From: an uncultured Armatimonadota bacterium
Lineage (GTDB): Bacteria > Armatimonadota > Fimbriimonadia > Fimbriimonadales > Fimbriimonadaceae
Assembly (NCBI GenBank): GCA_903927025.1
Contig: CAIYLG010000007.1
Location: 1-64,000 of the forward strand
DNA length: 64,000 bases
Direction: 5' to 3'
The notes beneath the pieces are model-generated. The model was not told the DNA's origin. It did no database searches and saw nothing but the letters and a program-made list of their open reading frames with translations. The translations under genes were made by a program, and so were the position numbers. This document shows, piece by piece, positions 17,479 through 20,999 of this stretch (its first letter is position 1; every line of letters starts with the position of its first letter).

Positions 17479-17733
17479 GGCCCTTCCTCTCGTCGGAACG
17501 AAAGGATGGGAGGTCGGAGTTCTGTTGGTTCTGTGAAAACAGCCGCAAACGATTGTTTATTAGCAAAAACTCGCTTTAGGCATTGCATTCGTTAGGTTTG
17601 GCTGTGACACAATGCTTTTCGCCTCGGCAAAGGCTTTTTGGGTTTGGGCCGTAGGGTGTGGGTTATCTACTTCAAATAAGATCCGCCCATATCCGCTCAT
17701 TTGTCTGAACTCAGAAATCGATTGTTGTCTCGC

Positions 17734-17852
17734 GGGCCGATTGGATTGGGTTATCGTCTAAGGCACGACAGGTCGCTGGTTCGAGTCCAGCCTCTCTTGT
17801 TCATACGGGAGAGTAGCTCAGTGGTAGAGCGGTACAAATGCCCAGTTCGCCC
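17734..17852 (+). ncRNA. Y RNA of the tRNA-mimicking YrlA type
   Basis: The element has a Ro-binding stem and a permuted tRNA-like module. The stem pairs GGGC (17734-17737) with GCCC (17849-17852), has a bulged C at 17738, then GA/TC, then TTGGG (17746-17750) with CCCAG (17841-17845). A small hairpin sits at 17754-17768. The module has T-arm GCTGG-TTCGAGT-CCAGC (17775-17791), acceptor-like CTCTCTTG/CGGGAGAG (17792-17799/17806-17813) closed by TTCATA, and D-arm GCTC-AGTGGTA-GAGC (17816-17830). T-arm before D-arm with the acceptor closed by a loop is the known YrlA layout, and a bulged C in GG-C-C-GA is a known Ro-binding feature. It lies 326 bases before rsr. Confidence 0.85.
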
Positions 17853-18177
17853 ACTTGTCTGCGAGCAGCTATTGAAATTTAGGAATCGCGCTATGAAACG
17901 GAATCTGGAATTGATAAACGAAATGCATCCGAGGAGCTACGGCTTCCTTGGCAGCATGGGCGTTGCCTCAATTACCCCACAAGATTCCGATCCCATTTTG
18001 GGACGGCGCTAGAGCAAACTCTTAACTCTCTCGCCCTCTCCCTAACTGGAGCGGGCAGATTCCAAAACACCGGATTTCACCCGCTTCCCCGACGAAGCCT
18101 TGGTTCGCACATGTCTCTCATGTCCGGGCCCCTCGACACGAGCCGATCGCTCGTGATGCGCAAGAGGTGAAATTTCC
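17853..18177. other. leader region between the Y RNA and rsr
   Basis: No gene is supported; the longest frame with an ATG (17893) gives 39 unremarkable residues. It holds a GC-rich palindrome-like piece (gagccgatcgctcg) near 18140 and, just before rsr, AAGAGGTG as a ribosome-binding site. It could be processed with or carry the end of the Y RNA transcript. Confidence 0.4.
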
Positions 18178-19743
18178 GTGAAGTACGCACAGCTGTTCAA
18201 TCCATTTCAGACCCCGCAAAGCATGCCCATCCCTGGTTCGGCCCAAGTCCCGAACTCAGCCGGCGGCTTCGTGTGGACCCTCGATCGATGGGCCGTCCTT
18301 GATCGATTTCTGATCCTTGGAACCGAAAGCGGCACGTATTACGTGGATGCCCCGATGCTCACCCATGAGAACGCGGCCAACCTCGTTGCGCTGATAGCCG
18401 ACCATGGTGAAAAGGTGGTGCTCCGCATCTGCGAGGTCAGCCATTCTGGCCGCGCGCCAAAGAATGAGCCTGCGATCTTCGCGCTGGCGCTCTGCGCTTC
18501 GCTTGGAAGCGAGGCCACCCGCGCCGCCGCCCTTCAGGGCCTTCCGATCGTCTGCAGAACCGGAACCCATCTGTTCCAGTTCGCGGAGATCTGCGATGGT
18601 CTGCGCGGTTGGGGACGTGGGCTTAGGCGCGGTATTGCCAATTGGTACAACTCTAAGGCAGTCGAGGAGCTGGAATATCAGGCGATCAAGTACAAGCAGA
18701 GGGACGGTTGGTCTCACGGAGACTTGCTCCGCCTTGCTCACCCGGTGCCGGCTTCCGAGGCTCACAAGGCGCTCTACAAGTGGATCGTGGACGGAGTCCA
18801 GGTTGGGGAATTCCCAAGAATCGAGGCGATGAGACGTCTGCAGAAGACCACGAGCGGAAAGGCGGCGGCGGAGCTGATTCGCGCGGCGCGGCTCCCAAGG
18901 GAAGCGGTTCCGACGGAACTCCTCAACGAGGTCGAAGTTTGGGAAGCGCTTTTGGAGAGCATGCCGATGACGGCGATGGTCCGAAATATGGCGACGATGA
19001 CTCGCGTGGGACTTCTGTGTCCTGGCTCCGAGGGAGTTCGCACGGTAGTGGCTCGACTGCAGTCGGCGGAAAGGCTGGCAAAGGCGCGCATCCACCCGAT
19101 GCAGCTGCTGATCGCACAGAGAACCTATGCCCTCGGAAGAGGGTTTAGGAGCTCGGTGACTTGGACGCCGGTGGCCAAAGTGATCGATGCGCTGGACACG
19201 GCGTTCTACGATGCCTTTGCGAATGTTCAGCCCACGGGGAAGCGATTCCTGCTTGGGGTGGACGTCTCTGGGTCGATGGGCACTCCCGTGTTTGGCTCGT
19301 CGGTGACAGCGTGCGAGATCGCGACCGCGATGGCGATGGTGACGATGGCAACTGAGGAGAATGTGACGCCGATGGCGTTTGCAGATTCCTTCAGAACGCT
19401 GCCGATCTCCAGGCGGATGAGGCTGGACGACGCGCTGATGCACACCCGAAATCAGAACTTCGGGAGGACCGACTGCGCGCTGCCGATGCTGTACGCACTG
19501 GAGAGGAAACTTGCCGTTGACGTATTCGTGGTCTATACCGACAACGAGACGTGGTTCGGCAAGATTCACCCTGCGCAGGCGCTGGCAAAGTATCGACAGG
19601 AAACGGGCATCAACGCGAAGCTGATCGTGGTAGGCGCAACTGCAAACCAGTTCTCGATAGCGGACCCGAACGACGCCGGAATGCTGGACGTGGTTGGCTT
19701 CGACGCCAGCGTCCCCGCCGTGATGAGGCAGTTCCTCACCTAA
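18178..19743 (+). CDS. rsr: Ro60/Rsr TROVE-domain RNA-binding protein
   Basis: A 521-residue ring-shaped RNA-binding protein. An N-terminal HEAT-repeat TROVE domain (about 1-350; opening NPFQTPQSMPIPGS is typical) is followed by a von Willebrand A domain with the MIDAS motif DVSGSMG at about 360-366. Bacterial Rsr binds Y RNA and can tether it to RNases or help RNA maturation and repair. The start is GTG at 18178, with GAGGTG 9 bases upstream. It follows a YrlA-type Y RNA and precedes rtcB by 68 bases, an established gene neighbourhood for bacterial RNA-repair operons. Confidence 0.95.
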   Translation: MKYAQLFNPFQTPQSMPIPGSAQVPNSAGGFVWTLDRWAVLDRFLILGTESGTYYVDAPMLTHENAANLVALIADHGEKVVLRICEVSHSGRAPKNEPAIFALALCASLGSEATRAAALQGLPIVCRTGTHLFQFAEICDGLRGWGRGLRRGIANWYNSKAVEELEYQAIKYKQRDGWSHGDLLRLAHPVPASEAHKALYKWIVDGVQVGEFPRIEAMRRLQKTTSGKAAAELIRAARLPREAVPTELLNEVEVWEALLESMPMTAMVRNMATMTRVGLLCPGSEGVRTVVARLQSAERLAKARIHPMQLLIAQRTYALGRGFRSSVTWTPVAKVIDALDTAFYDAFANVQPTGKRFLLGVDVSGSMGTPVFGSSVTACEIATAMAMVTMATEENVTPMAFADSFRTLPISRRMRLDDALMHTRNQNFGRTDCALPMLYALERKLAVDVFVVYTDNETWFGKIHPAQALAKYRQETGINAKLIVVGATANQFSIADPNDAGMLDVVGFDASVPAVMRQFLT

Positions 19744-19811
19744 GCGTTTGGCTCGGGGTCACCCAGAGTGCCCCTGAGCCGAACCTCTCAATATATAAAA
19801 GGATTTTCGAA

Positions 19812-20999
19812 ATGAACGTAAAGACATTTGGGCCCGTGGATGAGCGAGCCCTCAACCAGCTTACAAACTGCATCCAAGAGGCGGCCTTTGCCGTGCTTTG
19901 TGCGGACCACCACCCTGGCTACAGCCAGCCCATCGGCGGCGCGGTGGCCTACGCAAACCATATCTCCCCGAGCGGAGTGGGTTACGACATCGCCTGTGGA
20001 AACAAGGCGGTGCTCACAGACGCCAAGCTGAGCGATATCAACATTGCCAAGGTGATGGACGACATCGTCCGCCTCATCGGATTTGGAGTCGGTCGCCCTA
20101 ACCCTGCCCCGGTGGACCACGCCGTGTTTGAGAAGATTGCGCAAGCCGAGTTCAAGCCTCAGCGCCAGCTTTTGGACATGACGCGTCAGCAGCTCGGAAC
20201 TGTGGGCTCCGGCAACCACTACGTGGACATCTTCGCGGACGAGCAGGATCGGGTTTGGATCGGCGTCCACTTTGGCTCACGCGGATTCGGACACAAGACT
20301 GCCTCTGGCTTCTTGGCAATGGCCAAGGGCAAGAAGTTTGACGAGAAGGCACCGGAAGGAGAGATGGACTCGCCGCCAGTTCTCTTTGAAGTCGGTTCCG
20401 AAATCGGTCAGTCGTACATTCAGGCGATGCTTCTGGCGGGCGAGTATGCCTACGCCGGACGCGACGTGGTGTGCACCAAGGTCCTAGAGATCTTGGGGGC
20501 GAGCGAAGTGGAGTCGATCCACAACCACCACAACTTCGCGTGGCGGGAGACGCACTTTGGCGAGGAGGTCTGGGTCGTTCGTAAAGGATGCACCCCTGCG
20601 TTCCCTGGTCAAAAGGGGTTTGTCGGTGCGACGATGGGTTCTGTTTCGGTGATTCTGGAAGGAGTCGAGTCTGCGGACTCTCGTGAGGGCCTTTACTCCA
20701 CTGTTCACGGTGCGGGAAGGGTCATGAGTCGCACTCAGGCTGCCGGAAAGATGCGCTGGATCAACGGAGTTCCAACCCGTATCAAGGGTGGCCTCATCGA
20801 CTGGGAGAAGTCGCAGCAGGACCTCATCGAGAAGGGAATCGAACTTCGTGGCGGCGGTGCCGACGAGGCACCCGGCGTGTACAAGAAGCTCGACGAAGTT
20901 CTTGAGTACCACGATGGAACCGTGAAAATCCTCCATCGACTCCGACCGGTTGGCGTTGCGATGGCAGGTGCCGACGTCGTTGATCCGTACAAGGATTAG
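19812..20999 (+). CDS. rtcB: RtcB RNA-splicing/repair ligase
   Basis: A 395-residue GTP- and Mn-dependent ligase that joins 2',3'-cyclic phosphate or 3'-phosphate RNA ends to 5'-OH ends. Visible family motifs are GYDIACG with metal-binding C62, GSGNHYVDI, VHFGSRG, NHHNFAW, the RKGCTPAFPG segment and HGAGRVMSR. The ATG at 19812 matches the usual family start. An in-frame extension to 19551 overlaps rsr and has no RtcB similarity. Co-transcription with rsr is likely. I see no archease or rtcA gene nearby, and no sigma-54 regulator rtcR. Confidence 0.95.
   Translation: MNVKTFGPVDERALNQLTNCIQEAAFAVLCADHHPGYSQPIGGAVAYANHISPSGVGYDIACGNKAVLTDAKLSDINIAKVMDDIVRLIGFGVGRPNPAPVDHAVFEKIAQAEFKPQRQLLDMTRQQLGTVGSGNHYVDIFADEQDRVWIGVHFGSRGFGHKTASGFLAMAKGKKFDEKAPEGEMDSPPVLFEVGSEIGQSYIQAMLLAGEYAYAGRDVVCTKVLEILGASEVESIHNHHNFAWRETHFGEEVWVVRKGCTPAFPGQKGFVGATMGSVSVILEGVESADSREGLYSTVHGAGRVMSRTQAAGKMRWINGVPTRIKGGLIDWEKSQQDLIEKGIELRGGGADEAPGVYKKLDEVLEYHDGTVKILHRLRPVGVAMAGADVVDPYKD

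What the first reader, a model, noticed from the sequence alone, without database searches (positions are those of the whole stretch)
17734..20999. YrlA-type Y RNA, Rsr and RtcB in one module
The RNA shows the permuted tRNA mimic (T-arm, then closed acceptor, then D-arm) and a Ro-binding stem with a bulged C at 17738, followed by rsr and rtcB. Y RNA-Rsr-RtcB linkage is known in other bacteria, but here there is no rtcR sigma-54 regulator or rtcA beside it. The rsr leader is 326 nt long. The anticodon position of the tRNA mimic is replaced by a stem-loop with loop CTAAGGC.
Basis: partly seen in the sequence, partly recalled or inferred. Interest (0 to 1): 0.7.

Follow-up and report, generated by a model that had tools for sequence, protein, structure and literature searches.

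The report
Y RNA containing a complete permuted tRNA
Next to the bacterial Ro60 gene lies a Y RNA, known for resembling part of a tRNA, that here carries every arm of a tRNA including a standard seven-base anticodon loop, a feature missing from the reference family and shared by relatives in other bacteria and in phages.

Summary
Window 17729-17865 (+) encodes a Y RNA with the Ro-binding helix (bulged C17738) and a circularly permuted tRNA, followed by intact rsr (18178-19743) and rtcB (19812-20999). Rfam YrlA scores 41.3 bits, below its 69-bit cut-off. Relatives keep it. In 20 distinct leaders chosen by length alone, 90% of anticodon-stem cells pair (2000 column shuffles: mean 73%, maximum 82.5%) and U33 is in 19. 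The tertiary pair 15-48 covaries (11 G-C, 3 A-U). Mycobacterium and Microbacterium phage Ro loci carry the same form. The triplets vary and include A34 and stop anticodons, and the acceptor is a closed hairpin without CCA, so it is probably not a translating tRNA. A second, short Y RNA lies at 17637-17717. rtcB adjoins rsr in only 3 of 50 loci of the phylum; rtcA is elsewhere in the genome and no rtcR was found. This is a four-arm variant of YrlA. Adaptor use of the tRNA mimic on the Rsr ring is the likeliest role; an anticodon-nuclease decoy is the most novel reading left open.

The parts
17637..17717 (+). second, short Y RNA (YrlB-like, no tRNA domain): GGGC(C)GU...UGGGUUAUC...GCCCAU...UUGUCU, bulged C17650
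   Evidence: R1 covariance model 26.1 bits, E 1.1e-5, filters off; next match 8.3 bits
17729..17865 (+). four-arm YrlA-like Y RNA
   Evidence: R1 132.5 bits; RF02553 41.3 bits
17729..17740 (+). Ro-binding lower stem, 5' strand, bulged C17738
   Evidence: sequence; helix 1 has 5 pairs with changes on both sides
17855..17865 (+). Ro-binding lower stem, 3' strand
   Evidence: as above
17747..17751 (+). upper stem 5' strand UGGGU, pairs with 17840-17844 GCCCA
17754..17768 (+). anticodon arm UCGU-CUAAGGC-ACGA; loop 17758-17764, 'anticodon' AAG 17760-17762
   Evidence: covariation, loop length and U33 conservation in relatives
17770..17774 (+). variable loop AGGUC, C48 pairs with G15
   Evidence: 15-48 covariation: 11 G-C, 3 A-U, no exception
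17775..17791 (+). T arm
   Evidence: sequence; helix 4
17792..17813 (+). acceptor stem (7 bp) closed by a loop, no CCA end
   Evidence: helix 5 (6 of 7 pairs with changes on both sides)
17814..17831 (+). U8-A9, D arm and purine 26
   Evidence: sequence
18178..19743 (+). rsr (bacterial Ro60): TROVE and vWA domains, GTG start
19812..20999 (+). rtcB RNA ligase, only RtcB match in the genome, metal/guanylate ligand motifs kept

Best explanation
This is a Ro60-binding Y RNA of the YrlA kind whose effector domain is a whole class I tRNA, circularly permuted. The chain enters between the D and anticodon arms through the Ro stem, the acceptor is sealed as a hairpin, and the anticodon arm is kept (shown by sequence and comparison). 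The lower stem is expected to bind the outside of the Rsr ring. The tRNA-shaped part is expected to gate the ring and to act as an adaptor for a tRNA-binding partner such as PNPase or a tRNA-modifying or repair enzyme (inferred from Deinococcus and Salmonella). The anticodon loop is probably read as a shape, not as a codon reader, because its triplet varies and often cannot decode. The neighbouring RtcB is probably co-regulated repair, not a partner that the anticodon arm needs.
For: Whole-structure pairing 96.7%, with no shuffle of 500 as high on any measure (its rows were picked as four-arm). RNAalifold finds the anticodon arm unaided. The set chosen by leader length only: 20 distinct leaders, 90% paired against a maximum of 82.5% in 2000 column shuffles, pair 31-39 C-G 12, A-U 5, U-A 3, U33 19 of 20, A37 18 of 20. 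Leader shuffles: 12 observed with U33, mean 0.26, maximum 3 of 2000. Levitt pair 15-48 covaries. Genomes with an R1 match of at least 95 bits: 17 of 291, all among the 60 with rsr (P 3e-13, kinship not corrected). Phage Ro loci carry it. PNPase is present. RYPER tethering in D. radiodurans and the YrlA tRNA-like domain are described in PMC4726728 and PMC8394870.
Against: Energy models do not favour the anticodon arm alone: constrained folds lie 0.4-4.1 kcal/mol above the minimum, and its pair probabilities given the T and D arms are 0.0-0.6. Many Y RNAs in the same arrays lack the arm. No transcript data exist here, and no sigma-70-type promoter was found. Binding of this Rsr to this RNA is not tested.
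Confidence: 0.8

Rival explanations
1. It is bait or a sensor for anticodon nucleases. The loop draws cleavage away from tRNAs or is cut first, and RtcB next door reseals it.
For: In Salmonella the linked operon responds to tRNAs cut in the anticodon loop, and a competitive-inhibitor role for YrlA was proposed although YrlA itself is not cut (PMC7790460). The four-arm form supplies the missing loop, mostly with A37 followed by A or C. It also occurs in phages, one of which has tRNA genes nearby, and rsr sits in tRNA arrays in several phyla.
Against: rtcB adjoins rsr in 3 of 50 loci of the phylum. G091 has the four-arm RNA but no detectable RtcB. The window's own loop is CUAAGGC, which has G37 rather than the A36/A37 or A37/A38 step cut in Salmonella. 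No nuclease is known here.
Confidence: 0.2
2. It is a circularly permuted pre-tRNA gene: RNase P and Z open the acceptor and RtcB joins the ends left by removing the Ro stem, giving a functional tRNA.
For: All four arms and the canonical tertiary positions are present; unpermuted copies are called tRNA by ARAGORN in 13 of 14; a ligase gene is adjacent.
Against: ARAGORN also accepts 70% of copies with a scrambled anticodon region, so that test is weak. Acceptors are mostly closed by short loops with no CCA. Triplets include UUA and several with A34 that bacteria rarely use. The conserved Ro helix would be waste.
Confidence: 0.04
3. It is an ordinary three-arm YrlA and the 5' linker forms a chance hairpin without function.
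For: Canonical Rfam YrlA has a 4-nt linker there; several array members have no arm; folding energy is neutral.
Against: Fixed 22-nt leader, 7-nt loop, U33 and A37, compensatory changes in pairs 30-40 and 31-39, and recurrence in phages.
Confidence: 0.05

Closest known systems
YrlA (Rfam RF02553; Chen et al. 2014)
   Same: Ro-binding stem, permuted T arm / closed acceptor / D arm, next to rsr
   Different: has a full anticodon arm and 5-nt variable loop where RF02553 has a 4-nt linker; scores 41.3 against the 69-bit cut-off; 0 of 38 other rsr genomes reach the cut-off either
rsr-yrlBA-rtcBA operon of Salmonella (PMC7790460)
   Same: rsr, a YrlB-like and a YrlA-like RNA, rtcB
   Different: Y RNAs lie upstream of rsr; no rtcR found in the genome, rtcA elsewhere; Salmonella's YrlA is not cut by the anticodon nuclease
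RYPER (Rsr-Y RNA-PNPase, Deinococcus)
   Same: Rsr, Y RNA and PNPase are all encoded
   Different: complex not tested; Y RNA here is the four-arm form
Circularly permuted tRNA genes (red algae, archaea; own knowledge)
   Same: 3' half before 5' half
   Different: acceptor is a sealed hairpin without CCA, Ro helix at the open end, triplets often non-decoding

Membership tests
YrlA / bacterial Y RNA | Ro-binding lower stem with bulged C | tested here: met
   sequence, helix 1 covariation
YrlA / bacterial Y RNA | permuted T arm, closed acceptor, D arm | tested here: met
YrlA / bacterial Y RNA | linkage to rsr | tested here: met
   312 nt upstream; 17 of 17 genomes with R1 match of 95 bits or more have rsr
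YrlA / bacterial Y RNA | RF02553 gathering score (69 bits) | tested here: not met
   41.3 bits; the model has no anticodon arm, and no other rsr genome tested passes. Hence filed as a variant, not as a member of RF02553 as curated
YrlA / bacterial Y RNA | bound by Rsr in the cell | not testable with these tools
   needs pull-down
rsr-yrl-rtc RNA repair operon | rsr, Y RNA and rtcB together | tested here: met
rsr-yrl-rtc RNA repair operon | rtcA in the operon and RtcR/sigma-54 control | tested here: not met
   rtcA on another contig, no RtcR match in the genome
RYPER | Rsr tethered to PNPase by the Y RNA | not testable with these tools
   PNPase gene present
permuted pre-tRNA | processable acceptor with 3' end or CCA | tested here: not met
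   closed hairpin, no CCA

The most novel reading that the evidence does not exclude
Ro60-linked Y RNAs with a complete tRNA including the anticodon loop form a widespread class in bacteria and phages. They act as bait or sensors for anticodon nucleases, with the Ro ring and, where present, RtcB dealing with the cut products.
Probability: 0.2. Interest if true: 0.85.

Novelty: new variant of a known kind. Interest (0 to 1): 0.6.

Why it matters
Published descriptions that could be read treat the YrlA mimic as D, T and acceptor arms only (PMC8394870), and Salmonella YrlA is not a substrate of the SOS anticodon nuclease (PMC7790460). A Y RNA with a standard anticodon loop makes the open question of what the tRNA mimicry is for directly testable: delete or scramble only that loop. 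It also shows that the curated model misses the Y RNAs of many rsr loci, and places Ro60 in tRNA arrays and phages, where tRNA cleavage may be part of conflict.

Tried and rejected
ARAGORN on unpermuted sequences: 13 of 14 called tRNA, but 70% of scrambled controls too, so it carries no weight. Link between the anticodon arm and rtcB: not supported (3 of 50 loci; 16 of 17 four-arm genomes have RtcB against 225 of 291 overall). Recent capture of a host tRNA: the best other match in the genome is 76-78% identical over about 55 nt. Many R1 matches covering only model positions 30-111 are probably pairs of ordinary tandem tRNA genes, not Y RNAs. Minimum-free-energy folding of the window RNA alone gives a different fold. 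My regular-expression unit counts miss divergent members. The key papers on YrlA (Chen 2014, Wang 2018, Sim 2018 and 2020) are not held, so absence of a four-arm form from the literature is not proven.

Full report
Observation. The window (Fimbriimonas-like, Armatimonadota, from named relatives) holds rsr at 18178-19743 and rtcB at 19812-20999, both with their expected domains. RtcB keeps the Asp/Cys/His motifs and the HGAGR guanylylation motif in alignment to solved RtcB. Upstream, Rfam YrlA RF02553 matches 17747-17856 at 41.3 bits, E 1.3e-7, full length but under its 69-bit gathering score. The Rfam alignment misplaces the outer stem, because the true Ro helix starts at 17729 and the anticodon arm has no counterpart in the model.

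Anatomy. Reading 5' to 3': Ro lower stem CUCGCGGGC(C)GA (17729-17740), upper stem UGGGU (17747-17751), hairpin UCGU-CUAAGGC-ACGA (17754-17768), AGGUC (17770-17774), T arm (17775-17791), acceptor 3' strand, 8-nt loop, acceptor 5' strand (17792-17813), U8-A9, D arm (17816-17830), G26, then GCCCA and ACUUGUCUGCGAG. The canonical class I tRNA positions are there in permuted order: U8, A14, G15, G18G19, R26, U33, R37, a 5-nt variable loop ending in C48, and TTC in the T loop.

Second RNA. Scored at every position, the covariance model finds a short Y RNA at 17637-17717 (26.1 bits, E 1.1e-5) with the same Ro helix and no tRNA domain.

Conservation. Of 291 genomes of the phylum, 60 have Rsr. Fourteen four-arm RNAs from rsr loci were aligned; in the named structure 96.7% of cells pair, 17 pairs have changes on both sides, and no shuffle of 500 reaches any measure. 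RNAalifold finds the same arm without being told. These rows were picked because they had the arm, so I repeated the test on leaders chosen only by length (22 nt between the upper stem and the T arm) and by the presence of the other parts: 20 distinct leaders, 90% paired in the anticodon stem against a maximum of 82.5% in 2000 column shuffles. Pair 31-39 is standard in all 20, with three types. U33 is in 19 and A37 in 18; the exception to U33 is out of register by one base. Shuffling leaders gives on average 0.26 such arms with U33 where 12 are seen. Position 15 in the D loop and 48 in the variable loop change together (11 G-C and 3 A-U, no exception, in the aligned set; in the wider set 42 G-C and 20 A-U against 20 other combinations). 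That is the tertiary pair of a real tRNA core. The 5' side of the anticodon stem (AUC) is shared with the Y RNA motif in nearly all, so the compensatory changes probably arose within Y RNAs and were not imported from separate tRNAs (inference).

Association. In a whole-phylum scan, 17 genomes have a match of at least 95 bits; all 17 have rsr (hypergeometric P 3e-13, not corrected for kinship). Other phyla (Chloroflexota, Alphaproteobacteria, Myxococcota and others) and phage Ro loci also have full-length matches: FuzzBuster 97.1 bits with arm AUCAC-CUGUUAA-GUGAG, McWolfish 83.7 bits. Some loci hold up to seven Y RNAs in tandem, some short, some three-arm, some four-arm, and in Chloroflexota some with a long variable arm and a Leu/Ser/Tyr-type D arm.

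What it does not do. The triplets are diverse and include UUA (a stop reader) and many with A34. Acceptors of the four-arm RNAs are mostly hairpins closed by 3-5-nt loops, without CCA. A translating tRNA, or a permuted precursor of one, is therefore unlikely.

How it probably works. Shown: sequence, structure by comparison, linkage. Inferred: the lower stem binds Rsr, and the tRNA-shaped part gates the ring or brings in a tRNA-binding protein, as Y RNA brings in PNPase in Deinococcus (PMC4726728). What the extra arm adds is open. The most testable idea is an interaction with enzymes that read the anticodon loop, including nucleases. Hughes et al. saw no cleavage of the three-arm Salmonella YrlA and suggested competitive inhibition (PMC7790460). 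RtcB adjacency is limited to 3 of 50 loci of the phylum, all in one genus, so the arm does not depend on it.

Known or new. It works like a Y RNA and fits the YrlA architecture, but fails the Rfam cut-off and has an arm that the family model lacks. None of 38 other rsr-bearing genomes passes that cut-off, so the model covers only part of the diversity. The primary YrlA papers could not be read here, so novelty is stated as a new variant with that reservation. The confidence of 0.8 refers to the identity as a four-arm Y RNA acting with Rsr; the adaptor role itself is inference, at perhaps 0.4.

Noticed in passing
   Followed up: yes
L165 3075-4541 (-) and flanks; L166, L170, L171: Divergent vWA-type proteins, Ro60-like only at or below detection, sit beside arrays of tRNA-like RNAs with a GCGCGC..CCGA / ACUUGCGCGC stem; those in L165 and L166 have a CUGUUAA anticodon arm. 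L167 and L168 have weak TROVE proteins with similar RNAs.
   Followed up: partly
L085, L090, L091, L093, L094, L096, L109, L112, L118, L121, L122, L137, L147: rsr lies within or next to arrays of up to about 24 ordinary tRNA genes in several phyla, with a partly conserved order (Tyr, Gln, Phe, Lys, Gly, Thr, rsr, Asn, Glu) in Myxococcota.
   Followed up: partly
L020 162-227 (+): A bacterial Y RNA scores 41.9 bits on the nematode family RF01656 (sbRNA type), above its 38-bit gathering score, so the Ro helix is recognisable between animals and bacteria.
   Followed up: no
L116 3304-3477 and L111 5634-5815: Y RNAs in Chloroflexota whose tRNA part is class II, with a long variable arm; one has a Tyr-type CUGUAAA loop.
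   Followed up: partly
G095:C85:68515-68907: Same-genus genome with an rsr fragment carrying a stop and no R1 match: possible joint loss of rsr and Y RNA.
   Followed up: no
G000:C26:12729-13697: rtcA is present away from rtcB, with no rtcR in the genome.
   Followed up: partly
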